A program made the position numbers and the translations under genes. Below the pieces are notes generated by a model. That model was not told where the DNA came from, searched no databases, and saw only the letters and a list, made by a program, of their open reading frames with translations. Below, piece after piece: positions 953 through 32,932 of a stretch of 34,358 nt of DNA. This DNA is from a virus, in the IMG/VR virus record IMGVR_UViG_3300025000_000281, positions 1-34,358 of that record; one strand, written 5' to 3'. Position 1 is the first letter of the stretch; each line of letters begins with the position of its first letter.

Positions 953-985
953 TGCGTTACTCTTAACTTCGTTAATGCGTTACTC
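953..985. repeat. Two TGCGTTACTC direct repeats, operator-like
   Basis: TGCGTTACTC occurs at 953-962 and 976-985, 23 bases apart (about two helical turns). The same TGCGTTA core occurs twice more, at 2446 and 2482, in the promoter of the 1069-2423 operon. This placement just upstream of a promoter suggests sites for a shared regulator. Confidence 0.5.
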
Positions 986-1068: not shown

Positions 1069-1602
1069 TTAGCGATTTAAAACTTTACTGCGTATGTATG
1101 CGTTTGGCCTCATTCCTGCCTCTTTTGCACGGTATTCAATTTCAGCCCACTCGGAATCACTAAATCTAATCATTTTCTGAGATCTAACCCCAACAGGTGA
1201 CTCCCTGTCCGCATTAGACTGAGGACTTTTTCTTTTATCTGTTATCTTGTTAGGAGGCAGGCCAGCGGCTTCGATAAGTGCATTCCACGATCCGAAAAGC
1301 TTTTTAGTGTATAATGCACAAGGTAAATCTGGCTGCTCATTAAATTCTCGAAAACTGGGGGTTTTTCCTAGTATTTTAGATAGATTAATGACATGTTGAA
1401 TCATTTCTTCCTTAGTTACAAATGTTTTTTTATTAACATCCAGACCACATGCTTTAAGGAAGTTATTCCATGACGTAAAGTGCTTTCTTACTGAGAATCC
1501 GCAGTTAGAGTTAGTATATTTGTCAAACTCTTTCACTGTAGGCGTTCTGTCAAGATCTTTTGATAATTCTTGACATTGTTGAATCATTTTCTCTTTATCC
1601 AA
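1069..1602 (-). CDS. Two HNH-associated repeats fused to a ribbon-helix-helix domain
   Basis: A 177-residue protein. Two tandem copies of the homing-endonuclease-associated repeat (HNHR type) are visible at about residues 5-55 and 66-116, each with the pattern L-x-RTPT-x-x-EF ... FxSWNxxLxAAGL. The C-terminal ~35 residues (MIRFSDSEWAEIEYRAKEAG ... YIRSKVL) look like a MobC/Arc-like ribbon-helix-helix DNA-binding domain. No nuclease core is present. Family knowledge says such repeats bind DNA next to HNH or GIY-YIG nucleases, so this is probably a multi-domain DNA-binding protein. The first codon may be TTG (1602) or the in-frame ATG six codons on (1587); neither has a strong SD. It is the last gene of a three-gene unit starting at 2423. 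Confidence 0.7.
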   Translation of the reverse strand: MDKEKMIQQCQELSKDLDRTPTVKEFDKYTNSNCGFSVRKHFTSWNNFLKACGLDVNKKTFVTKEEMIQHVINLSKILGKTPSFREFNEQPDLPCALYTKKLFGSWNALIEAAGLPPNKITDKRKSPQSNADRESPVGVRSQKMIRFSDSEWAEIEYRAKEAGMRPNAYIRSKVLNR

Positions 1603-1657
1603 AATTATAGGACGGGCTATTTTAAATCACCACTTTCTATGCAAAATTAAATATTTA

Positions 1658-2032
1658 TTACTTACATCCAATTCCTTCGCCTGCTTCAACTTCCTCGGCA
1701 TCGGCAATATATTGGCCGCCTTCATTGTAAACGCGGCCATATTCGTCTATGGTCATTTCAATGCTGTTTTCATAACAGTTAAGCATTGCCTTGTTATCTT
1801 CCTCTGTTTTTCCTAACACTGCAAAAATGTCAACTTTTTTCATTTTATCAATCCCCTTTTCTATCTTTGGGTTGGGATGATCTTTAGGCATCACCCATGT
1901 TTTACCGATCTTCACGGCAATAACTTTGCCGGCAGCACACATATTTTTGATTGTGCCGGGAGCGAGGCCCCATTTTTCTGATGCTTCTTCTACCCCCATG
2001 ATTTGCTTAAGACACTCAAAATTATTTTTCAT
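1658..2032 (-). CDS. HTH DNA-binding protein (MerR/excisionase-like fold), Aca-like position
   Basis: I start the protein at ATG 2030-2032, with GGAG upstream; an in-frame TTG lies two codons earlier. Residues ~12-50 carry a winged helix-turn-helix of the type common in Firmicutes phages (GVEEASEKWGLAPGTIKN, then KVIAVKIGKTWVMPKD, ending in the typical wing and proline). The rest (~70 residues) is acidic and unrecognised. The start overlaps the end of the acidic protein gene at 2022-2423, so the two are translationally coupled. A small HTH protein directly after a small acidic protein, under a promoter with a palindromic operator, suggests autorepression in the way of anti-CRISPR-associated (Aca) proteins. 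That role is inferred from layout only. Confidence 0.7.
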   Translation of the reverse strand: MKNNFECLKQIMGVEEASEKWGLAPGTIKNMCAAGKVIAVKIGKTWVMPKDHPNPKIEKGIDKMKKVDIFAVLGKTEEDNKAMLNCYENSIEMTIDEYGRVYNEGGQYIADAEEVEAGEGIGCK

Positions 2033-2423
2033 CCTCAATAAGCTCCATTTCCACTATATAGTAACCCATTTCCTCACAATCCCAATCGCTCGATACATAA
2101 GTAATTCTCATCTTTGTATCGGCAGGAACCAAGCATTCAGCTTCATCTTCACAGTCAGTTGCTCCTAGAATGTCACATTCATTAGCGTTATTATAGTCTA
2201 CAACGTGACAAGGTACGTTATTACAAAATAGTACATACGTTATTGATCCTGTCGATTCAGGTGTAAAATCTTTTTCTGCCCTACTTCTATCTGTCCAACT
2301 CTCTGCTTTGCCTCTATTGTCGTATATTTCACCTTCTACGAAATCCATTTCAAAGTTTGTTACTATTGTTCTACCTAAATCTTTGATGCCGTCTATTTTA
2401 TTTGCAAGTTCATTCTTTGTCAT
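2022..2423 (-). CDS. Strongly acidic 133-residue protein, unknown function
   Basis: Unrecognised. I count 31 Asp/Glu against 12 Lys/Arg (net about -19) and six Cys (67, 72, 83, 91, 97, 116). The C-terminal third is particularly acidic (TDCEDEAEC, DWDCEEMG, MELIEDEK). ATG at 2423 follows AAGGAG with good spacing and lies about 40 bases downstream of a predicted transcription start. It is the first gene of a promoter-driven unit beyond the lysis terminator, followed by a coupled HTH gene. Such position and acidity are common in morons that mimic DNA or block host defences, but nothing in the sequence proves this. It could equally be a lysogenic-conversion protein. Confidence 0.65.
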   Translation of the reverse strand: MTKNELANKIDGIKDLGRTIVTNFEMDFVEGEIYDNRGKAESWTDRSRAEKDFTPESTGSITYVLFCNNVPCHVVDYNNANECDILGATDCEDEAECLVPADTKMRITYVSSDWDCEEMGYYIVEMELIEDEK

Positions 2424-2445
2424 TTTAATTATCTCCTTTTGTCTA

Positions 2446-2499
2446 TGCGTTATCGTCTTTCTTATTTATAATTATATACTATGCGTTACCGCATGTCAA
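2446..2499 (-). promoter_or_regulatory. Consensus promoter with palindromic operator for the 1069-2423 unit
   Basis: The minus strand reads TTGACA (2494-2499), a 17-base spacer and TATAAT (2471-2476), a perfect sigma-70 promoter. The spacer contains ATGCGGTAACGCAT (2481-2494), an inverted repeat with ATGCG/CGCAT arms, and a second half-site ATAACGCAT lies at 2445-2453, just downstream of the start site. A protein bound at either would block RNA polymerase. Only the HTH protein or the RHH protein of the same unit, or an XRE protein, are nearby candidates. Confidence 0.75.
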
Positions 2500-2520: not shown

Positions 2521-2555
2521 AAAATAAAAAAAGCCCCGACCGCGTAGGCCAGGGC
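2521..2555 (-). terminator. Strong intrinsic terminator of the late operon
   Basis: Minus strand: 9-bp stem GCCCTGGCC / GGTCGGGGC (two G-T pairs), loop TACGC, then TTTTTTT. It lies 45 bases past the stop of the last lysis gene and separates the late operon from the promoter at 2471-2499. Confidence 0.85.
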
Positions 2556-2599: not shown

Positions 2600-3061
2600 T
2601 TATGATGCTTGGCTTTCCGCCTCTAATACCGGCTGCGTCTCCCCGATCAATCCAACTTCCACCGACTCCAAACTGCTGGCATCCATTTGCACATCAAAAG
2701 TCCGCAAACTCTTGTCCGCCAACCATGCCCGTTCCACAGCGTTTCTGGCCAGGTTGTAACTAAGGTTAACACCGGACAACCCCTGGCTGTCCATGTGCTT
2801 CTGGAAAAAAGAAATGGCTTCATGCAGCTTGTCCGCTCCGCTCTTCTCCCGGAAAACTGTTTCGGCGTACACAAAAGCCTTTTGGCCAAGCTGCTTGACG
2901 AGCTCCTGCTGTGTTGCCGTGGTGTGTGCTTTAATCCACTTGTCGGCAGCCGGATACAATCTCCTGACCACCACTCCGACGTAGGAAAATACCGCTGCTG
3001 CAATTAAATAGAGCATGTCCGGCAGGAAATGATTGATTAGACCTACCATAAAATCTTGCAT
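2600..3061 (-). CDS. Phage holin, LL-H type
   Basis: A 153-residue protein with one N-terminal membrane segment (about residues 13-33, PDMLYLIAAAVFSYVGVVV) followed by RRLYPAADKWIKAH and a long soluble part rich in Lys and Ala. This is the layout of the LL-H holin family, whose members form the membrane lesion that lets endolysin reach the wall. I start it at ATG 3059-3061, because the frame's upstream GTG (3076) lies in the SD itself (GGAGG, 5 bases before this ATG). It is the last gene of the lysis cassette, after the amidase, and is followed by the late terminator. The cassette also has a BhlA-type holin, so one of the two may be a pinholin or antiholin. Confidence 0.85.
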   Translation of the reverse strand: MQDFMVGLINHFLPDMLYLIAAAVFSYVGVVVRRLYPAADKWIKAHTTATQQELVKQLGQKAFVYAETVFREKSGADKLHEAISFFQKHMDSQGLSGVNLSYNLARNAVERAWLADKSLRTFDVQMDASSLESVEVGLIGETQPVLEAESQAS

Positions 3062-3126
3062 TTTCTGTACCTCCACTTTTTAATTTTATAGCCCCAGCAT
3101 GGCCAGGGCAGCTCAGGATAACCTTG

Positions 3127-3774
3127 TTATGCTTTTATTTTTAACGCGTTCAAAATAACTTTCAGCACAAACCATTTCGGCGCTGGGTCATCAGGATTAT
3201 GGTCCTGACTAATTAAGCCAGCCTTTTTTGCTTCCTCAATGATATCCAGTTTCCATTGTTCCGGCATTTGATTTTCACCTCCGCGCAAATCACCAAACAA
3301 CCTGTTCCAGGGGAACTTCGTACCCGGACAATTGGGACGGTTAACGCTGTCAATACGGTAATGTCCGATGATGTGATCCTTATCTATGGGAATACCATGT
3401 TTAGCGATTAACTGTTTATGTAGCCAGAGAGTTGCTTGATATTGTTCCTCGGTCAAATTTCCATCCCCGCCGGCACCAGTATATCCTTCATGTTCAATAC
3501 CGATGGTATAGAGATTGGGATTCGTGCCATCATAGAGCAGCCAACTGGGTTTTGCAACTGCCCCGGCGTGCCATGCTGCGTTTTCATCGGCGACAAGCTG
3601 TATGATCTGGCCGTCCCTGGTGACAATATAGTGGGCAGAGGCTTTTGCTGTTGGGTTGCAAAGCCAGTCCCGGCAACCGGGAAACTTACCTGCAGTGATA
3701 TGGTTGACAATGGCTATCGGCCTTCTGCCGTTCCTGCTACTAAAGTTTGGGCTTGGTGATTGTTTGATTTGCAT
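3127..3774 (-). CDS. N-acetylmuramoyl-L-alanine amidase endolysin (Amidase_2)
   Basis: A 215-residue enzyme that cleaves the MurNAc-L-Ala bond of peptidoglycan at the end of the lytic cycle. The Amidase_2/T7-lysozyme fold covers residues ~15-155. The three zinc ligands are visible as His25 (IVNHITAG), His138 (IIGHYRID) and Cys149 (RPNCPG). The core motifs SAHYIVTRDG and YTIGIEHEG are also present. The C-terminal ~55 residues (MPEQWKLDIIEEAKKAGLI ... KWFVLKVILNALK) resemble a short helical wall-associated or dimerisation segment seen in other Clostridial phage amidases. There is no signal peptide, so export depends on the holins that flank it. The start ATG lies a few bases after the stop of the BhlA-type holin. 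Confidence 0.93.
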   Translation of the reverse strand: MQIKQSPSPNFSSRNGRRPIAIVNHITAGKFPGCRDWLCNPTAKASAHYIVTRDGQIIQLVADENAAWHAGAVAKPSWLLYDGTNPNLYTIGIEHEGYTGAGGDGNLTEEQYQATLWLHKQLIAKHGIPIDKDHIIGHYRIDSVNRPNCPGTKFPWNRLFGDLRGGENQMPEQWKLDIIEEAKKAGLISQDHNPDDPAPKWFVLKVILNALKIKA

Positions 3775-11426: not shown

Positions 11427-12269
11427 CTATCTGAAATATTTATTATACTCCTGGCGGCGTCTTTCACCCGAGAGCTGCGCGTATATCATTGTTGTGGAAA
11501 TGCGTTGGTGCCCAAGATTTGACATAATAACTTCCATCGGGGCCCCGTTATTCAACATGGTTGTGGCCATGGAATGACGCCAACGGTGCGGGTAGACGTT
11601 AGTTTCGACCTCTGAGTGTTTAGCGATTTCTTTGACGATTTCGCGTATCCTGGCGATCGACATACGCCGGATTGGATTTCTAACCGTAACAAACAGGGCT
11701 TCGTGGTCATCGGTCCGGGATTTTATATATTTGTCCAGCCAAATTTTACATTTAATCGTAAAGTACACTTCACGCTGCTTGTCACCTTTTCCGATGACTG
11801 AAGCCGAACGCGCGTCCCAGTTAATATCTCTACGGTTTAATCCGTACACCTCACCGATGCGGCAGCCGGTACTAAAAAAGAACTCTGTCAGTGCTTTTTC
11901 CAGCAGAGAATCACAGCTATCCCGTAGCAACTCAATCTCTTCCTCATTGAAAAACTTTGGGATCCTCTTTCCCTGCTTTGGCTCTCTTAGTTTTGCGGCA
12001 ACATTATGGTTCACGAATCCTTCTTCGTGCAAATATCGGAACAGCGAACGAATAAACTTGATTCTATGGCCAACACTGGCAGGTTTAAGATGTACCTGCT
12101 TAATTAAATACTCTTTAAGAGCAAGATGGGTAACATTTTCAATCTCAATGTCGCCTATGTGTCTAATTAATAAGTTAGACTGTATTTGGTATGCATTAAG
12201 CGTGTGGGGAGAATATCCTAAAAGCCTTTTATCCCCCTCGTAAAGTTTCCAAGCTTCAGTGAGTAACAA
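11427..12269 (-). CDS. Tyrosine recombinase / integrase (XerC/D-like)
   Basis: A 280-residue integrase. A SAM-like core-binding domain covers residues ~1-90 (SPHTLNAYQIQSNLLIRHIG). The catalytic domain follows, with every key residue visible: Arg137 (GCRIGE), Lys161 (IGKGDKQR), His228 and Arg231 (PHRWRH), His254 (LGHQ) and the nucleophile Tyr263 (TTMIYAQL). It is therefore likely active in site-specific strand exchange. It has its own promoter (12313-12341) and terminator, and lies inside the tail operon rather than at the phage end next to attP. So it may serve a smaller element inserted in the phage, or be a displaced phage integrase. No N-terminal arm-binding domain is seen, which fits a XerC/D-like rather than lambda-like enzyme. 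Confidence 0.93.
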   Translation of the reverse strand: MLLTEAWKLYEGDKRLLGYSPHTLNAYQIQSNLLIRHIGDIEIENVTHLALKEYLIKQVHLKPASVGHRIKFIRSLFRYLHEEGFVNHNVAAKLREPKQGKRIPKFFNEEEIELLRDSCDSLLEKALTEFFFSTGCRIGEVYGLNRRDINWDARSASVIGKGDKQREVYFTIKCKIWLDKYIKSRTDDHEALFVTVRNPIRRMSIARIREIVKEIAKHSEVETNVYPHRWRHSMATTMLNNGAPMEVIMSNLGHQRISTTMIYAQLSGERRRQEYNKYFR

Positions 12270-12285
12270 GTTGCCGCCCCCTTAT

Positions 12286-12355
12286 TGTTCCGTTTAGCGT
12301 AACACTAATATTATATTAACATGTTCCGTTTTGCGGGTCAATATGTTAATATAAT
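12286..12355. promoter_or_regulatory. Divergent promoter/operator between integrase and XRE gene
   Basis: Two 13-bp arms form a perfect inverted repeat (12310-12322 ATTATATTAACAT and 12343-12355), separated by 20 bases. A 14-bp direct repeat TGTTCCGTTT(A/T)GCG occurs at 12286-12299 and 12322-12335, its second copy filling the inverted-repeat spacer. For the integrase (minus strand) TTGACC (12336-12341), 17 bases and TAATAT (12313-12318) form a promoter. For the XRE gene (plus strand) TATAAT is at 12350-12355 but no good -35. The repeats are good candidates for the XRE operator. Confidence 0.7.
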
Positions 12356-12381
12356 CGAAACAAATAAAAGGAGCTGCAATT

Positions 12382-12585
12382 ATGGAAGTTAGAATCAAAC
12401 TGGCCGAGTTATTGGAAAAGAAAAACATGTCTCAAAGAGAACTTTCACGATTAACAGGAATTCGCCTGGCATCAATAAATGAGATGTATAATAATGATAC
12501 TTCCAGGCTGCCATTGGGTAACCTTGCAAAAATATGTGAGGCACTAAGCTGTAAAATTCAGGATATATTAAAACTGGAGAACTAA
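12382..12585 (+). CDS. Small XRE-family HTH regulator (Cro/YozG-like)
   Basis: A 67-residue protein made almost wholly of one helix-turn-helix (residues ~5-62: AELLEKKNMSQRELSRLTGI, then RLASINEMYNNDTSRLPLGNLAKICEALSCKIQDIL). Such short Cro/C1-type proteins (YozG-like) act as dimeric regulators. ATG follows AAAGGAG with 8-base spacing. It is one of few plus-strand genes, divergent from the integrase and convergent with the zinc-finger/recombinase-like gene, and the promoter region between it and the integrase is full of repeats. It most likely controls the integrase, and possibly itself. Confidence 0.9.
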   Translation: MEVRIKLAELLEKKNMSQRELSRLTGIRLASINEMYNNDTSRLPLGNLAKICEALSCKIQDILKLEN

Positions 12586-12601
12586 ATCATTAGGAATATC
12601 C

Positions 12602-13387
12602 TTATTGTTCTTTATTATAATACACCCTTGGTGAACGGACCATTATGCCAGCTCTACTAGCTACTTTTTTTAAGTGATAGCGCATCTGATTAATAGGCAT
12701 CTTATGTGGTGCACGCTCTGTTACAATAAGTGCCGAGTCATCATCATTGCGTAAATCCAGGTAACTTTTCAACCACTTTATGAGTTCTGCATCACTGTAT
12801 GTTTCATTTCTTATAGTTACTATGCTTTCAGATATTTTTATATCTCCCTTGTTTAAAGATATTAACTCTTTAAACTGGCCTTGAAAAATATAAAGTAGTT
12901 CTACCAGTAAGTGCTCTAAGGGTGTCTTGCAATAATCTGCTAACATTTTTTTATTTTCTACATCTCTAATGTCAAGTTCATTTATGCCTCTTAGTTTTTC
13001 AATTGTTAAATCAGTTACATCAACGGCATCTGCATGAAGCATCTTATTGTGCAACTGACAAACCCAAATAATTTTTTGGCGCTCCCCTTTTTCATATGAA
13101 AGATGATGAGCCACAACATTTGTATCTCCACAAATTGCACAGGGTGACTTCACCAACCTACCTTGTTTCACTGCTTTTTTTACTATTTCCATGGATCTTA
13201 CTACTTCTTTCCTGCGCTGCCTATAATCACGATTGTATTCTGTTATCTTTTTCCGGTTTTCTTTTTGGTACTTTTTAGTTCGTTCATTTTGACATACCCG
13301 GCATCTGTGGTAAGCTGGTGATCTTTCCAATAATCCAGGAGAAAATGCTGTCTCAGGTAAATCGCGGCCGCAATCTCTGCAAATCAT
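12602..13387 (-). CDS. Zinc-finger/HNH-like protein with a degenerate tyrosine-recombinase C-terminus
   Basis: A 261-residue protein from ATG 13387 (SD GAGGTG, spacing 6). Residues 1-60 begin with a zinc ribbon (Cys3, Cys6, Cys29, Cys32) and a highly basic KKYQKENRKK stretch. Residues ~80-120 carry a second metal motif, Cys83-x2-Cys86, His94-His95, Cys110-x2-His113, His118, as in HNH-like domains of phage proteins. Residues ~150-255 align by eye with the catalytic domain of the neighbouring integrase (LEHLLVELLYIFQGQFKELISLNKGDI against LEKALTEFFFSTGCRIGEVYGLNRRDI; then SYLDLRNDDDSALIVTERAPHKM). The catalytic Arg is lost and the chain ends before the His-x-x-Arg and Tyr boxes. So recombinase activity is unlikely; DNA binding or regulation of the integrase is my inference. 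Confidence 0.7.
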   Translation of the reverse strand: MICRDCGRDLPETAFSPGLLERSPAYHRCRVCQNERTKKYQKENRKKITEYNRDYRQRRKEVVRSMEIVKKAVKQGRLVKSPCAICGDTNVVAHHLSYEKGERQKIIWVCQLHNKMLHADAVDVTDLTIEKLRGINELDIRDVENKKMLADYCKTPLEHLLVELLYIFQGQFKELISLNKGDIKISESIVTIRNETYSDAELIKWLKSYLDLRNDDDSALIVTERAPHKMPINQMRYHLKKVASRAGIMVRSPRVYYNKEQ

Positions 13388-13420
13388 AATTAGCACCTCG
13401 AATATAATATCACTTTTCTT

Positions 13421-21257: not shown

Positions 21258-23384
21258 TTATTTAGCTATCAGGTTACCATGTTTCTGCAACATCTCATCC
21301 GGCGGCGGCTCAAAGGTTAATTCCGGCTGCGGCTGCTCCTCCGGCATAACATAGGCAAAAATACACCGACAATTTGAATGTATAGGCGGCTTGAACCTCT
21401 TAGCCTCCGGCGTACCTGCCTGAATTATCATACCGTCAAGCTTTTTGCACAAAGGACAGGTGCGCTTATCTAGGATGGCTGAGTATTGGATCCGTTTTAC
21501 CCCTTGCTCCTCAGCAACAAAATCCCTACCTGAGTTAATTGCCCAAGCCGTTTGTACCGTAGCGTGTCCTTCGAGTTCCTTCTTGGTGTAGTCCTCAAAG
21601 TTCTGCTTTGCCGCTTTAACAGCGTCCTTTGGCTTCTCGCCTGCCTCAATACCATTTAACACATCGAAGACAATTCTTGCACTCATGGATGCAATTATTT
21701 TTTCTGTTATGGTTGCTGCACGGAGCCCAATTATTTGCTTGCTCATATCAGGCATAGCAGGCTTTTCGGTTTCAAGTTCTCCTGCTGCCTGCTCGGAACC
21801 AAAGGTGAACAATCCGGCAAGGTAACTATTGATGAATTCTGCCAAGGGTTCGCTTTCAACTACTAACTGACTTACCTCTTCCCACTTGCCTTCCGCGATT
21901 AATGCGGCCAACTGCTTTAGGCATGGCGCAAACTGTTCGCCAAGAATCTCTAAGCCTCTCTTAATAAACTCTTCTTCGGAGGTGTCAAACTTTTGGTCTA
22001 TTTCGGCAAACTTGATTCTTTTTTCGTAAGTTGTTAGGTCCCTACGCCATACAGGTTCAGCAAATTTAAATCCTATTTTTTTTGCTCCACCGCAGCAATC
22101 ATGTTCGCTTGCCTTTACTGGTTCCTTTGGCGGCTCAGGAGGATTATTGGGAGGTATAAAAGCTTCCTGCTGACCTCCCCGGATTGTTGCCTCATCAATT
22201 TCCGGCAACTCCATTAGCTCACGCATATACTTTTCTAACCCATCATCAGGCTGTATTATCCTGCCACCAACAAGAGTATTAACACCATTAATAATGCCTT
22301 CCGAATTCCTACCGCCAACCTTTTCAAACTTCAGCTTTGGATATCCCTCAACGTCCCAGTTATAGTCAACCAACTGAGGTATGGCATAACTGTTTACCGT
22401 GTCGCAAATATACTTAGCCTGAGAGTTTAGAGACATCAAAAAGAAGTCGCTCTGGTCTTTGCCCAGGGCAAAACTTCCTACGCTGCCGGTTCCAAGCTGC
22501 AGGAATTGAGCTAGTGCAGCTTTGGCGATCATCTGGTCCTGGTACTGAATATAGGGCAAAACCTCGATAGCAACCCTTTTCCCCTCGAACATCTCAAGGG
22601 TCCATCCGAATGGTAATACTACTCCTGCATCTTGACCAGAGCGGAGGTTCCTTGTTATTTTTTCGGCTTCTTTCTTATCACTATCATCGTCCTGAGTATC
22701 TTGCGGCAGCCCAATAACTGGCGTGCCAACATGGTTTTTCTCAATACCAATGTTCGTTATTTTTAAGAGGAAGTCCTTAATAAACCAGTGCTTATATGCG
22801 GCTCTCAGTACCGGTATCCCGTGCAGCCTCCCACCCTCCTTCCGGTGAGTAAAGATAAGGCAGTTCTCTACTGGCATTTCAACAAAAGAAGCCCCTGCTA
22901 CGTACTGTTCAACGTGCATCGGCCCGCCTCTTTCATCATATTTGAAATCTTTTATGGTCTCATGTGGCCGTTCGGCAAACTTTTTCCATTTAGCGAAGCC
23001 TTTAGAATCAACCTCATAGACCTTCTCAAAAACCGAATGACCGAATGGGAACATCAGCAAAGCCAGGCGCAAAAAGTCATCCCAGTGGGTAGTCATACCC
23101 TTTGGAGGACCTGAGAAAAGGTTTTCCTCTATGAATTCAGCTATCTGTACGTCCTTAGGATTATTTTTGTCGTAAGGCTCCACATACCACCTAGTAGACC
23201 TGATCGGTAGTTCCAGGCAATAGAGTAAAGCCTGTACCTGGGCATCTGACCGGCGCATCTTGTCGTAGGTTGTTATGCTGTTCGGCCATGTCAGTAGGGA
23301 AAGATACTCTGTATCTGACAACCGGTTAAACAGTGAGCGCGATATTGATCCTATTTCTTCTTGCGATACTTGTCTTTTTGCCAT
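21258..23384 (-). CDS. Portal (DUF935/Mu gp29-like) fused to MuF minor head protein
   Basis: A 708-residue fusion. Residues ~1-420 are the DUF935 portal (MRRSDAQVQALLYCLELPIRSTRWYVEP, HWFIKDFLLKITNIGIEKNHVGTPV, IKYIQYQDQMI-like helix ALAQFLQLGTGS), which forms the dodecameric DNA gate. After a Pro-rich linker (PPNNPPEPPKEPVK) comes a helical part and the MuF domain near residues ~590-690, with AINSGRDF, ILDKRTCPLCKKLDG and PPIHSNCRCIFAYV (two Cys-x-x-Cys-like pairs and His). In Mu these are two genes (gp29 and gp30/F). It starts at ATG two bases after the terminase stop. Confidence 0.93.
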   Translation of the reverse strand: MAKRQVSQEEIGSISRSLFNRLSDTEYLSLLTWPNSITTYDKMRRSDAQVQALLYCLELPIRSTRWYVEPYDKNNPKDVQIAEFIEENLFSGPPKGMTTHWDDFLRLALLMFPFGHSVFEKVYEVDSKGFAKWKKFAERPHETIKDFKYDERGGPMHVEQYVAGASFVEMPVENCLIFTHRKEGGRLHGIPVLRAAYKHWFIKDFLLKITNIGIEKNHVGTPVIGLPQDTQDDDSDKKEAEKITRNLRSGQDAGVVLPFGWTLEMFEGKRVAIEVLPYIQYQDQMIAKAALAQFLQLGTGSVGSFALGKDQSDFFLMSLNSQAKYICDTVNSYAIPQLVDYNWDVEGYPKLKFEKVGGRNSEGIINGVNTLVGGRIIQPDDGLEKYMRELMELPEIDEATIRGGQQEAFIPPNNPPEPPKEPVKASEHDCCGGAKKIGFKFAEPVWRRDLTTYEKRIKFAEIDQKFDTSEEEFIKRGLEILGEQFAPCLKQLAALIAEGKWEEVSQLVVESEPLAEFINSYLAGLFTFGSEQAAGELETEKPAMPDMSKQIIGLRAATITEKIIASMSARIVFDVLNGIEAGEKPKDAVKAAKQNFEDYTKKELEGHATVQTAWAINSGRDFVAEEQGVKRIQYSAILDKRTCPLCKKLDGMIIQAGTPEAKRFKPPIHSNCRCIFAYVMPEEQPQPELTFEPPPDEMLQKHGNLIAK

Positions 23385-28412: not shown

Positions 28413-28610
28413 CTAAGCCCTCTGATTATTTTGTTTCAGCCACCTAGCCATACCTTTTAGGATAATATCCAAGGCCACATCGGAAAACTGACATTTCAAA
28501 TGGTCTAGTGCCTTTACTTTGGTCATTTTACGCATAGATTCATGATTATCCTGACAAAATTCCCTGACTTCCTCAACCTGCTTCTCTTCCTGTTCGGTTC
28601 TTTTAGCCAT
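28413..28610 (-). CDS. Hypothetical 65-residue helical protein
   Basis: From ATG 28610, which overlaps the ParB stop and has the G-run GGGGGGG nine bases in front. MAKRTEQEEKQVEEVREFCQ, then KMTKVKALDHLKCQFSDVALDII. Charged and helical, maybe an adaptor or DNA-binding helper. Unrecognised. Confidence 0.55.
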   Translation of the reverse strand: MAKRTEQEEKQVEEVREFCQDNHESMRKMTKVKALDHLKCQFSDVALDIILKGMARWLKQNNQRA

Positions 28611-31287
28611 TACGTGCATCCCCCCCTATATTGACTAACTGACTACCCATCAGCTCCAGCAAACGCCTGTCCTTCTCGGCCTGAATCCGAAACTTTCCGC
28701 TTTCCCTCATGTCCCGGAAAAGTGCCATATCTAGTTCTTTTTCCGATACTGAACCAAGCAGGAACTTGTATTCGTCGCTATCCAACGGGAGGCTTAGAAG
28801 TCTGGTTGCCCTGTCTACTATAGCAAGCTCACCCGACTCGTCCTTTTCGATACTAAGCGGCACGCCTTCGCATAAGATAACATCATCTTTCAGAGCTATG
28901 CTATTAATATAGTTGTCGCTTTTAAACTGGTTTTTGTATGTCAAACTGTAGAACCCATCCTCAAGAGGCCCTACAACATGGACTACTACCCCACCAGTAC
29001 CGTAAGGGGTTTTTATGTGCTTACCCATCAGCGCATGAACCTTATCGGCAAACTCTCGCGGCTGATCGAAAGGATCCGCCTCTGCCTGCCTCGGTTCATC
29101 CTGCCCAACCTTCTTCCAACCCCGCTTCTCCGCATATTCCACAAGGTTTGCTTCGGCCTCTTTCCGCGTCTCGACGTATGGCATCGACGTTGATTTCATG
29201 CAAGTAAGAGCTTCTTCTCCGTCCTTGCAATAGAACGTCCTATATGCCTTTCCTGCTGCTCCGTAGGTTACAAATAAGATGCGGCCATCATTATCCTCGT
29301 AGTGGCAAGTTCTATCGGATGGACTAATTTGCTCTGCATCCGCACTAACTAGTCCACTCGTTTCTGACTGCGACTTTTCCTTAGCGGGAGCCGAAAAACC
29401 TCTACAAGCACGGAATAGCTTACTGTTTTCCTCAAATTCTGCCCAGTTTTTGCACGGCGTGTTAAATTCTCCATTTCCGCATCTATCCCTTTTAATCCCG
29501 GCGCTTGCTGGAATCCTAAACATACACCCGTCCGGGCAGTTGTCATGTATGTTGTGAGTGCTTTTCGGTTCAAAATCGGGATTTTCTTTCACCGGCAAAC
29601 CCTCTACATTAGGTATATGTTCGGTATCGTCGAACACTCCCCGGCAGTCCCCCCATTTTTCTTCCGGGTCCTCAGTATAGCTATCATTAAATAATTTAGG
29701 GTTACTGCACCGATAATGTTCTCGCTCCAAGTGCATCACTTTAACCTTATATCTACATTCATCAGGGCAGTCGAAATGTGTATTCATTGTGTTTTGAAGA
29801 GTGTACTCAGCATTAGATTCTGTTACTAAAACATCAGTTTCCGTTACCGTGATGTCTGTATTTGTTACTGTAGCATCAATTTCCGGCCTATTAAGCTCAC
29901 ACTCGCCGTTCTTGCACATCCAAAAAGGTTGTCCCTGATCTATCACTCTGACAACGTGACTACACTCAGGCGGGCATTTTGCCGTGTACAAGAAAGTGTT
30001 TTTCATAGTCCAAACTGGGTCTGCCGGTTCGTTTATAGTTTCCGGCCCATCATTCACAGCCTCTATTTCTTCCTCAATAAAAAAATCGTCTAAGTTGCTT
30101 TCTCGTACATTGCCCAGCCTCAACTCATCTACCATATGCCAGTCAACAGCCTCTACTTCACACACCGGTTTACTATCATCGTCAGTAAGGTCTAGGGGTA
30201 ATCTAGCCTTAAATAGCTTCTCCTTAGCCTCTTCCTCGCTTTCAGCCCTGATCCTAAAGCTGATTCTCGCCACTACACTGACCTGGCCGTAGAACTCTTT
30301 CAGCGAGCTGTCTTCCTGCTCCGGTTCTACATCCTCGTCCTGCTCGAACAGCATTACATCGTTCCAGACACAACTTTGCTCAGCGTATACAATTGCGGCT
30401 TCTTCCTCTGAATTTGAATCAAACGGGCATCCTACGGGAGATATGCAAACGTCAAATACCTTCTCCCCATCTCTTAGTTTGGCAAGTTTTTTGCTCGTAC
30501 AATCTCCGCATTTATCGGGTTCCGTCAGTATTACAAAACTCTCAGAAAATTCGTTGATGGTCAGTATTTCCTCGTTCGCCTTTTCAGCCTCTTGCCTTGC
30601 CAATTCCTCCTGTAGCCACTTCTCACGCTCACGATTTGCCGCAATTTCGCGCTCTATGGCTATCTCTTCGCGTAGAGCAATTATTTCACTAGCTATGTCT
30701 CTTACCGCCAGTTTCTTCTCAGCAACTCTTTCCCCTAAACGCTCCATGAATTCTGGCCCAAACTTCTTCGCTACCAAAATTTCCTTAGCCTGGCCAACCG
30801 AAATTATTCCACGTGAAATATTCCACAGCACAGATTCGGGTAGCTCCAACAATCGCACCCTGTTCGCTATATGGCTCTGACTCTTACCTAGCCTTTCAGC
30901 AAGTTCCTCCTGCTTCAGACCGGTGTCTAGGAGCAGCTTAAACCCGTTAGCCTCTTCGATGGGGTTAACGTCTTTGCGCTGCAGGTTCTCCACGACCATG
31001 ATTTCAAGCTCCTGCGCTTCTGTGAGGCCGCTTTTTATGACTGCAGGTATTTCGGTAAGTCCTGCCTCTTTTGCCGCTCTCCAACGGCGTTCCCCTGCAA
31101 TTATGCGGTATGTTGGGGATAGAGTTGGTGTCTCTGTGTCAATCATCACAACCACGATAGGTTGCACCACTCCCATACTCCGTATGCTGGCGGTAAGCTC
31201 AGCCAGCCCCTCCGGGCTAAAGTCTTTTCGCGGATTATTAGGATTCGGCACTATCATGTCAAGCGGTATATTTATCATGCTACTCAA
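28603..31287 (-). CDS. ParB/Spo0J-family protein with long Cys-rich C-terminal region
   Basis: I start it at TTG 31287 (SD GGGGTGA; ATG three codons on is the alternative), giving 894 residues, about three times a usual ParB. Residues ~1-230 are the ParB CTPase/N domain and HTH (GERRWRAAKEAGLTEIPAVI, VVENLQRKDVNPIEEANGF, LAERLGKSQSHIANRVRLLELP). A coiled coil follows (EIAIEREIAANREREKWLQ). Then at least three Cys-rich units: KCPPECSHVVRV ... WMCKNGEC, DCPDECRYKVKV ... YRCSN, NCPDGCMFRIPA ... DRCGNG. The last ~300 residues include a separate region with LLSLPLDSDEYKFLLGS. Phage ParB-like proteins may serve plasmid-type partition or gene control. No ParA is in the window. Confidence 0.85.
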   Translation of the reverse strand: MSSMINIPLDMIVPNPNNPRKDFSPEGLAELTASIRSMGVVQPIVVVMIDTETPTLSPTYRIIAGERRWRAAKEAGLTEIPAVIKSGLTEAQELEIMVVENLQRKDVNPIEEANGFKLLLDTGLKQEELAERLGKSQSHIANRVRLLELPESVLWNISRGIISVGQAKEILVAKKFGPEFMERLGERVAEKKLAVRDIASEIIALREEIAIEREIAANREREKWLQEELARQEAEKANEEILTINEFSESFVILTEPDKCGDCTSKKLAKLRDGEKVFDVCISPVGCPFDSNSEEEAAIVYAEQSCVWNDVMLFEQDEDVEPEQEDSSLKEFYGQVSVVARISFRIRAESEEEAKEKLFKARLPLDLTDDDSKPVCEVEAVDWHMVDELRLGNVRESNLDDFFIEEEIEAVNDGPETINEPADPVWTMKNTFLYTAKCPPECSHVVRVIDQGQPFWMCKNGECELNRPEIDATVTNTDITVTETDVLVTESNAEYTLQNTMNTHFDCPDECRYKVKVMHLEREHYRCSNPKLFNDSYTEDPEEKWGDCRGVFDDTEHIPNVEGLPVKENPDFEPKSTHNIHDNCPDGCMFRIPASAGIKRDRCGNGEFNTPCKNWAEFEENSKLFRACRGFSAPAKEKSQSETSGLVSADAEQISPSDRTCHYEDNDGRILFVTYGAAGKAYRTFYCKDGEEALTCMKSTSMPYVETRKEAEANLVEYAEKRGWKKVGQDEPRQAEADPFDQPREFADKVHALMGKHIKTPYGTGGVVVHVVGPLEDGFYSLTYKNQFKSDNYINSIALKDDVILCEGVPLSIEKDESGELAIVDRATRLLSLPLDSDEYKFLLGSVSEKELDMALFRDMRESGKFRIQAEKDRRLLELMGSQLVNIGGDARNG

Positions 31288-31303
31288 TATGTTCACCCCA
31301 TTT

Positions 31304-32932
31304 TTAAATAGCTTTGCGATTTTCAGCACACAATTCATTCAAATTAGCCCGGGTAAGATGTTCGGCCAGTGCCGGAGGTACAGCATTTCCGCACCTGGCA
31401 ACTTGGTTGGCTTTCGAGAAACGGTTCCCCTCGGCGTCCCTGTCAATTATGTAGTCGCTTGGGAAACCTTGCGCCGCGAAAAGCTCGTGTGGCTCCAGCA
31501 TCCGCATTCCGATGTCAATGATCTGATAGTCCTCGCCATGAATAGTTACAAGGCCAAATCTGTGTTTAGTTGTGATAGTTTGGAGTGGCTCATCACAGGC
31601 TTGTCCTACACTATTTCCGTAAAATTTCGTCAAGAAGGCTCTGACCTCTCCTAGATGTGTTCCTCCGGCAGAAACAGTATGCAGCGGTTCTGTAACTGTT
31701 TGACCTATATTCATACCCGGCCCAGTACCGCGAAACTTGATCAGGTGACTAGTTACAAGAGCAAATCGGTTTGCCGTGTCAACTGTCCTAATTGGTTCGC
31801 CTGGTTGCTGTCCTCTCGCGCCTGCCGATGACGTTTCACCATGATACTTTGACAAAAACGCTGTTACTAGAGCGTTGTGGTCAGTGGTCGTTACTGTGTG
31901 TATCGGATGGTCAAGACTACTACCAGAGCCTGTGTAACCGCCGCCGTAGTGTTTAGCCAGGAATGCGGCAACTAATTGAGATTTGCCCATTCCTCCAGCC
32001 GTGATTGTCCCCAATGGGTCGGTTACATTATGGCCAACGCTTTGACCGAACTGTCTGGCTATTACAGGAGCAACTACTCCCCAGCCATTCTTTGATGTTA
32101 TGGTTTTGAAAGGTTCGTCTATAGAGTCACAGTAGTGGTGACTTGACCCGCTATAATTTACTCTCACAATAAAAGGCTTTGGGTTATCTACAACAAACTT
32201 CTGAATTCCCCGGGCAATTCTCCGCATAGTGTTCTCGGCCAGTGGCTTTTTGCGCTCGAATATTGAAGGACAAGGTAATGACCAATCAATTATTTCAGCA
32301 GCGGTTCTCCAGGGTAGAAGTTTTCCTGATTTCACTTCTGGACTATCTGGACTGCCGTTGGTCGGTTGCGGCCAAACAATCGGCCTACCGTCACAGCGTG
32401 CCACCAGGAAAAACCTTTTTCTGATAGTTGGCGCCCCATAATCACACGCTCTAAGCTCCCGATACTCCACCTGGTAGCCTTGACGTTTCAGTGCGTTCAC
32501 AAAAGCGTTGAACGTCCGGCCTTTTTGTTTTGGATCTGGTTTGCCTTCCACAAGCGGACCCCAAGTTTTAAATTCTTCCACGTTCTCCAAGATTATCACA
32601 CGTGGTCGGACAGTAGCTGCCCACCTGACTGCCACCCATGCCAGACCTCGGATATGTTTTTCTACCGGCTTTCCGCCTTTGGCTTTGGAAAAGTGCTTGC
32701 AGTCAGGACTCAGCCAGCACAGCGCCACCGGTCTACCGTTTACCGCTTTTCGCGGGTCTATATCCCAAACTGATTCACAAAAGTGTTCTGTATCAGGATG
32801 GTTAACCCGGTGCATAGCGACTGCTACGGGGTCATGGTTAATTGCGATATCTACCGACCGGCCTATTGCCAGTTCAATACCAGTTGATGCTCCGCCACCA
32901 CCGGCAAAGTTGTCTACTATGATTTCTCTAAT
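31304..32932 (-). CDS. DNA (cytosine-5-)methyltransferase, apparent ATT start
   Basis: Probable length 542 residues. Motif I (DNFAGGGGASTGIE) lies 7-20 residues from an in-frame ATT at 32930-32932, and no ATG, GTG or TTG occurs between this point and the upstream stop. The first ATG (32815) would lose motif I. Motif IV is SPDCKHFS with Cys78, motif VI ENVEEF, motif VIII RKRFFLVAR and motif X VARCGNAVPP. The variable region holds about five repeats of the form DxPxxTITxxxxxxLVxxFLxKxYG. SD candidate: eight Gs at 32940-32947. The target sequence cannot be predicted. Likely role: protecting phage DNA from host restriction. Confidence 0.85.
   Translation of the reverse strand: MREIIVDNFAGGGGASTGIELAIGRSVDIAINHDPVAVAMHRVNHPDTEHFCESVWDIDPRKAVNGRPVALCWLSPDCKHFSKAKGGKPVEKHIRGLAWVAVRWAATVRPRVIILENVEEFKTWGPLVEGKPDPKQKGRTFNAFVNALKRQGYQVEYRELRACDYGAPTIRKRFFLVARCDGRPIVWPQPTNGSPDSPEVKSGKLLPWRTAAEIIDWSLPCPSIFERKKPLAENTMRRIARGIQKFVVDNPKPFIVRVNYSGSSHHYCDSIDEPFKTITSKNGWGVVAPVIARQFGQSVGHNVTDPLGTITAGGMGKSQLVAAFLAKHYGGGYTGSGSSLDHPIHTVTTTDHNALVTAFLSKYHGETSSAGARGQQPGEPIRTVDTANRFALVTSHLIKFRGTGPGMNIGQTVTEPLHTVSAGGTHLGEVRAFLTKFYGNSVGQACDEPLQTITTKHRFGLVTIHGEDYQIIDIGMRMLEPHELFAAQGFPSDYIIDRDAEGNRFSKANQVARCGNAVPPALAEHLTRANLNELCAENRKAI

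What the first reader, a model, noticed from the sequence alone, without database searches (positions are those of the whole stretch)
1069..2499. Candidate anti-CRISPR/Aca-type operon beyond the lysis terminator
A strong promoter with an operator palindrome in its spacer drives, in order, a very acidic Cys-containing 133-residue protein, a coupled HTH protein and an HNH-repeat/RHH fusion. It sits between the late terminator (2521-2555) and the lysogeny end, where morons are common. A small acidic protein followed by an HTH repressor that acts on its own promoter is the known logic of acr-aca operons. The promoter, operator and coupling are seen in the sequence; the anti-defence role is inference.
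Basis: partly seen in the sequence, partly recalled or inferred. Interest (0 to 1): 0.75.

Follow-up and report, generated by a model that had tools for sequence, protein, structure and literature searches.

The report
Phage ADP-ribosyltransferase counter-defence operon (predicted)
A phage of an unknown bacterium carries a small self-regulated gene set whose first protein looks like a miniature ADP-ribosyl-transferring enzyme; its close relatives sit beside proven anti-CRISPR genes in Listeria phages and plasmids, so it is probably an enzyme that disables bacterial immunity.

Summary
In detail: a minus-strand operon (2423 to 1069) lies behind the lysis terminator, with a perfect sigma-70 promoter, a palindrome in its spacer, an acidic 133-aa protein, an overlapping HTH protein and an HNH-repeat/RHH protein. 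The palindrome alone is not significant (p 0.11), but inverted repeats in the promoter spacer recur across 11 related loci (combined p 7e-6). AlphaFold models of two members of the acidic protein's family match only ADP-ribosyltransferases (ARTs) among the best PDB hits, and Arg18, Ser42 and Glu94-x-Glu96, the R-S-ExE signature, are invariant. About 40 relatives occur in Listeria, Lactobacillus and other phages, Listeria plasmids and viral contigs. One lies directly behind acrIIA2-acrIIA1; on a Listeria plasmid one shares an island with a Cas5b-like gene (probably AcrIB3) and an AcrIIA1 homologue. The second gene changes family from locus to locus while gene order and promoter design stay, which fits an interchangeable Aca-type regulator rather than an antitoxin. 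A Lactobacillus host with type I-B CRISPR carries spacers against its ART prophage, but imperfect ones. Best reading: an autoregulated counter-defence operon with an enzymatic, likely anti-CRISPR, effector. Target and activity are untested.

The parts
2533..2555 (-). intrinsic terminator of the lysis operon, upstream boundary
   Evidence: 9-bp stem, T7 tail; holin and endolysin upstream
2471..2499 (-). sigma-70 promoter, TTGACA-17-TATAAT
   Evidence: 12 of 12 matches; the same design recurs in related loci
2481..2494 (-). putative operator ATGCGGTAACGCAT in the promoter spacer
   Evidence: alone p=0.11, combined over 11 loci p=7e-6
2446..2453 (-). second TAACGCAT site, between -10 and ribosome-binding site
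2022..2423 (-). gene 1: 133-aa acidic protein, predicted minimal R-S-ExE ADP-ribosyltransferase (R18, S42, E94-x-E96), PHROG 32996
1658..2032 (-). gene 2: 124-aa HTH_17/excisionase-like DNA-binding protein, 11-nt overlap with gene 1; candidate Aca-type repressor
1069..1620 (-). gene 3: two HNH_repeat domains plus C-terminal RHH (NikA-like); possible second regulator; TTG start 1602 or ATA start 1620
953..982 (-). two further TAACGCA copies 23 bp apart downstream of the operon; role unknown
   Evidence: (D7)

Best explanation
A self-contained, autoregulated counter-defence operon. At infection or induction the strong promoter makes a burst of gene 1, a minimal ADP-ribosyltransferase that uses NAD+ to modify (probably on arginine, because of its E-x-E) a component of the host's immunity, most likely a CRISPR-Cas effector. 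The co-translated DNA-binding protein(s), gene 2 and perhaps gene 3, then bind the spacer palindrome and the downstream half-site and shut the promoter, as Aca proteins do. Shown: the operon, the promoter, the ART fold prediction, the invariant R-S-ExE residues, the linkage of relatives to validated acr genes, and the interchangeable second gene. Inferred: catalysis, target, and repression.
For: ART fold: AF2 pLDDT 87.4/pTM 0.80 for P0003 and 89.5/0.81 for a Listeria relative; the 50 listed Foldseek PDB hits are ARTs or toxins with an ART domain, E from 5e-5; VIA Z up to 8.7 and 9.5; viral library likewise rich in phage ARTs and MuF-ART fusions; the family profile A3 had one PDB match at E<=10, the ART Vis, aligned on its ExE (E 0.29). 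R, S and ExE are among the 14 columns invariant in 19 sequences down to 33% identity. acr linkage: L031 acrIIA2 (6mcc E 1.7e-35; NF033945 2e-46) - acrIIA1 (5y69 E 6e-70) - ART; plasmid p60 ART - HTH - Cas5b-like (27.243 kDa; AcrIB3 listed as 27.24 kDa in PMC13131331) - AP2 - unknown - AcrIIA1 homologue (E 1e-27); AcrIIA1-NTD-like gene 2 in Listeria phages (E 5e-4) and Lactobacillus (40% id). Position behind or against the lysis genes is shared. Promoter design shared. Gene 2 families vary: HTH_17, RHH, XRE-like, AbrB, or ART-RHH fusion. L. selangorensis: complete type I-B, no Cas9 hit, two spacers against its own ART prophage.
Against: No enzymatic, binding or phage data. Pfam and NCBIfam do not call gene 1 an ART. 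The window itself has no validated acr gene, and its host is unknown. The window's palindrome is not significant alone (p 0.11). Gene 2 resembles excisionases as much as repressors and belongs to no Aca family I could test. The Lactobacillus self-targeting is imperfect: a PAM-adjacent mismatch in one spacer, a non-CCW flank (ACA) and three PAM-distal mismatches in the other, so escape can explain it. The second Lactobacillus genome has type I-E and no matching spacer.
Confidence: 0.6

Rival explanations
1. Gene 1 is a host-takeover ART, like T4 Alt/ModA/ModB, modifying RNA polymerase, ribosomal or other host proteins to favour the phage, and not an anti-defence enzyme.
For: Phage ARTs of this kind are known and are prominent in the viral fold hits; a MuF-ART fusion in L015/L016 suggests injection with the DNA.
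Against: Relatives also sit on Listeria plasmids, which need no phage takeover, inside acr islands, and in phages with Aca-like regulators.
Confidence: 0.15
2. An ART toxin with a DNA-binding antitoxin, or a lysogen-protecting (superinfection-exclusion or abortive) ART module.
For: Toxin plus DNA-binding antitoxin with an operator in the promoter is type II toxin-antitoxin logic; ART toxins exist; one partner matches MazE/AbrB.
Against: The second gene belongs to unrelated families in different loci, is absent in L012, and is replaced by RHH or MuF fusions in L043 and L015, so there is no conserved antitoxin.
Confidence: 0.12
3. A catalytically dead ART scaffold acting as a stoichiometric, acidic (DNA-mimic) inhibitor of Cas or restriction enzymes.
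For: pI about 4.1-4.4 in every member checked; the fold lacks the N-terminal helices of most ARTs; many Acr proteins are acidic binders.
Against: R, S and E-x-E are invariant at 33% identity, which a dead scaffold would not need.
Confidence: 0.1

Closest known systems
acrIIA2-acrIIA1 operons of Listeria phages
   Same: A relative of gene 1 sits directly downstream of them (L031); lysis-proximal place, strong promoter with operator, HTH regulator of the same N-domain type in Listeria phage and Lactobacillus relatives
   Different: Gene 1 shows no sequence relation to AcrIIA1 or AcrIIA2; predicted enzyme; the window's own regulator is HTH_17, not AcrIIA1-like
AcrIF11 (ADP-ribosyltransferase anti-CRISPR, PMC12421852)
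   Same: Small phage/plasmid ART in an acr setting; precedent for the mechanism
   Different: AcrIF11 is diphtheria-like with H-F-H-D key residues; this family is R-S-ExE (arginine-type), did not match AcrIF11 in the sequence search of solved structures, and lies in Bacillota elements
R-S-E ADP-ribosyltransferases (Vis, VIP2, C3, Tre1; phage Alt/VIP2 and MuF-ART domains)
   Same: Fold, invariant R, S, ExE; MuF fusion in L015/L016
   Different: Only the catalytic core, about 130 aa; own sequence family (PHROG 32996, no function assigned)
Aca1-Aca10 repressors (PMC9410906)
   Same: Second gene, DNA-binding, palindrome inside the core promoter
   Different: HTH_17/excisionase-like; not assigned to a named Aca family; binding untested
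AcrIB3 (Cas5 mimic, PMC13131331)
   Same: A Cas5b-like gene of the same mass lies two genes after a gene 1 relative on L. seeligeri plasmid p60
   Different: A neighbour of a relative, not a relative; no Cas5-like gene was seen in the window operon

Membership tests
ADP-ribosyltransferase superfamily, R-S-E clade | ART fold | tested here: met
   Two AF2 models; listed PDB hits are ARTs or ART-domain toxins. A prediction, not a solved structure
ADP-ribosyltransferase superfamily, R-S-E clade | conserved Arg, Ser and E/Q-x-E | tested here: met
   R18, S42, E94, E96 invariant in 19 sequences; ExE aligned with Vis by the family profile; R and S positions agree only with alignment ranges, not checked atom by atom
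ADP-ribosyltransferase superfamily, R-S-E clade | recognised by a curated ART profile | tested here: inconclusive
   No Pfam ART hit; one member reaches the PHROG ART exoenzyme family only at E 0.13
ADP-ribosyltransferase superfamily, R-S-E clade | NAD+-dependent transfer | not testable with these tools
   needs an assay
anti-CRISPR (Acr) | inhibits a CRISPR-Cas system | not testable with these tools
   no experiment on this family found in the papers searched
anti-CRISPR (Acr) | linkage to validated acr or aca genes | tested here: met
   met for relatives; not in the window itself
anti-CRISPR (Acr) | carried in a genome whose own CRISPR targets the element | tested here: inconclusive
   L. 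selangorensis type I-B spacers 35/36 and 33/36 to its ART prophage, both imperfect; G002 none
Aca repressor | operator inside the core promoter | tested here: met
   combined p 7e-6 over 11 loci; window alone p 0.11
Aca repressor | member of Aca1-10 | tested here: inconclusive
   HTH_17 just under the Pfam cut-off, excisionase PHROG E 6e-10; Aca models were not at hand
AcrIF11 | diphtheria-like H-F-H-D key residues | tested here: not met
   family has invariant R-S-ExE; AcrIF11 residues from PMC12421852
type II toxin-antitoxin | conserved cognate antitoxin gene | tested here: not met
   partner genes unrelated, absent or replaced by fusions

The most novel reading that the evidence does not exclude
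A new family of enzymatic anti-CRISPRs of Bacillota phages and plasmids: minimal arginine-type (R-S-ExE) ADP-ribosyltransferases that inactivate type I-B Cascade (or another Cas effector), used both as expressed proteins with swappable Aca repressors and, fused to MuF head proteins, as injected ones.
Probability: 0.4. Interest if true: 0.85.

Novelty: new variant of a known kind. Interest (0 to 1): 0.7.

Why it matters
Enzymatic anti-CRISPRs are rare, and AcrIF11 is the ADP-ribosylating precedent found here. A second, apparently unrelated ART lineage in Listeria, Lactobacillus and other Bacillota elements would show that phages recruited ARTs against CRISPR at least twice, would give a substoichiometric off-switch, and would explain an unannotated gene in well-studied Listeria acr loci. 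The ART-first/regulator-second/spacer-operator pattern is also a handle for finding more counter-defence genes.

Tried and rejected
Phage DNA similarity: none. Single-sequence scans of viral contigs with P0003 found nothing, with P0002 one weak relative; only the family alignments reached relatives. First genome scan empty, second gave two Lactobacillus loci. Cystine-knot toxin Pfam hit (E 0.016) rejected: below cut-off, single member. Profile A4 against PDB gave only a chance myosin match, so the sequence-level ART link is weak and the case rests on fold plus invariant residues. Host co-occurrence: Cas5 in 2 of 2 Lactobacillus carriers means little, since 107 of 399 class genomes have it, and the subtypes differ (I-B, I-E). 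AcrIF11 was not seen among the listed fold matches, which shows nothing. Whether the Listeria relative has already been tested or named (AcrIIA12, AcrIB1 and a Listeria type I-B screen come to mind) could not be checked: the primary papers are not held. No Rfam match. P0012, the plasmid second gene, did not match AcrIIA1 significantly, so only the phage and Lactobacillus second genes are called AcrIIA1-NTD-like.

Full report
What is in the sequence. Behind holin 2600-3076 and endolysin 3127-3774 stands a terminator (2555-2533), then a 12/12 sigma-70 promoter (2499-2471), a 133-aa acidic protein (2423-2022), an HTH protein whose ATG (2032) overlaps it by 11 nt, and a protein with two HNH-repeat domains and an RHH end (1620 or 1602 to 1069). 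The promoter spacer holds ATGCGGTAACGCAT, and TAACGCAT recurs at 2453-2446; two more TAACGCA lie at 982-953 beyond the operon. The window is a viral contig record of unknown host.

What gene 1 is. It belongs to PHROG 32996, function unknown. Its relatives are Listeria phages at 42-45% identity, Listeria plasmids at about 35%, some 35 viral contigs at 38-68% and two Lactobacillus genomes. In the first alignments I noticed that R18, S42 and E94-x-E96 followed by LxPAxTK look like the R-S-ExE signature of ADP-ribosyltransferases, and that in L015/L016 the domain ends a minor head protein of the MuF type, where ART domains are common (PMC5576092, PMC9503650). The test came afterwards: an AlphaFold2 model with 19 family sequences (pLDDT 87.4, pTM 0.80) found ARTs or ART-domain toxins in the 50 listed PDB rows, Z up to 8.7; a second model started from a Listeria relative gave pLDDT 89.5 and Z up to 9.5; the viral library gave many phage ARTs. 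With more distant members added, R, S, E, E remain among only 14 invariant columns. By my own knowledge of iota toxin (R295, E380) and VIP2 (R349, E428), the aligned ranges put their catalytic residues within about two residues of R18 and E96; I could not superpose atoms, so this is agreement, not proof. E-x-E rather than Q-x-E suggests an arginine target (established knowledge of the family).

What it goes with. In L031 the order is acrIIA2, acrIIA1, ART, AcrIIA1-NTD-like, AP2 protein. On plasmid p60 (L006) the order is ART, HTH, Cas5b-like, AP2, unknown, AcrIIA1 homologue. The Cas5b-like protein weighs 27,243 Da; AcrIB3, a Cas5 mimic, is listed at 27.24 kDa (PMC13131331), so it is probably the same protein, though I had no sequence to compare. 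In Lactobacillus selangorensis the ART follows an endolysin and precedes a 74-aa protein 40% identical to the AcrIIA1 N-domain. Elsewhere the second gene is HTH_17-like (L011, L039, L040; by resemblance to gene 2), RHH (L009, L010), XRE-like (L013), AbrB-like (L045), or fused as RHH to the ART (L043). An AP2 protein is third or nearby in the Listeria, L006/7, L013/14, L042, L044 and L045 loci; the window has an HNH-repeat/RHH protein there.

How it is controlled. In most loci a near-consensus promoter with a 17-nt spacer lies 55-76 nt before the ART, often with an inverted repeat of different sequence in the spacer (L012 and L042 lack it). Shuffling spacers gives p=0.11 for the window alone and 7e-6 for 11 loci together. 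Aca operators in core promoters are the published pattern (PMC9410906). Unrelated DNA-binding proteins in the same slot with unrelated operators fit an exchangeable repressor and speak against a toxin with its antitoxin.

Is CRISPR the target? L. selangorensis has Cas3, Cas5b, Cas7b, Cas6 and an unassigned gene in the Cas8 position and no Cas9 hit. Two of its spacers match the prophage that carries the ART: one in the major head gene (35 of 36 nt, flank CCT, mismatch next to the PAM), one in an unknown gene (33 of 36, seed intact, flank ACA). This is what an anti-CRISPR prophage would show, but both matches are imperfect and escape could explain them. The second carrier has type I-E and no match.

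Verdict. The ART fold is very likely (about 0.9), catalytic activity likely (about 0.75), a counter-defence role likely (about 0.75), and CRISPR as the target about even. It works like an acr-aca operon with an enzymatic effector; it is not a member of AcrIF11, and I do not file it as a proven Acr.

Noticed in passing
1012-1027 and 30805-30820: parS-like near-palindromes TATTCCATGTGGAATA and TATTTCACGTGGAATA; the second lies inside a ParB-like gene (28603-31338). 6 pattern hits against 0.96 expected.
   Followed up: partly
953-959 and 976-982: Two TAACGCA direct repeats behind the operon, matching the half-site of the promoter; may be further sites of the regulator or arm sites, since gene 2 resembles excisionases.
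   Followed up: partly
11427-13396: Tyrosine integrase and HNH-endonuclease-like gene inserted among tail genes, far from the usual lysogeny region.
   Followed up: no
21258-23384: Portal and MuF head domain fused in one 708-aa protein.
   Followed up: no
1618-1620: Gene 3 seems to start at ATA (MARPIILDKEK), a non-standard start, with AAAGTGGTG before it.
   Followed up: partly
L015 and L016, 1169-3043: ART domain fused to the C-terminus of a MuF-type minor head protein; suggests an injected form.
   Followed up: partly
L043, 6001-6549: ART fused to an RHH-like DNA-binding tail, an effector and possible repressor in one chain.
   Followed up: no
L048 and L051: Lactobacillus selangorensis type I-B array spacers match its own ART prophage (head gene and an unknown gene).
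   Followed up: yes
L006 5820-6533: Cas5b-like plasmid protein of 27,243 Da, probably AcrIB3, two genes after the ART relative.
   Followed up: partly
window 2446-2488 and L013 promoter: The octamer TAACGCAT is shared by the operators of the window and L013, although their second genes belong to different HTH families.
   Followed up: no
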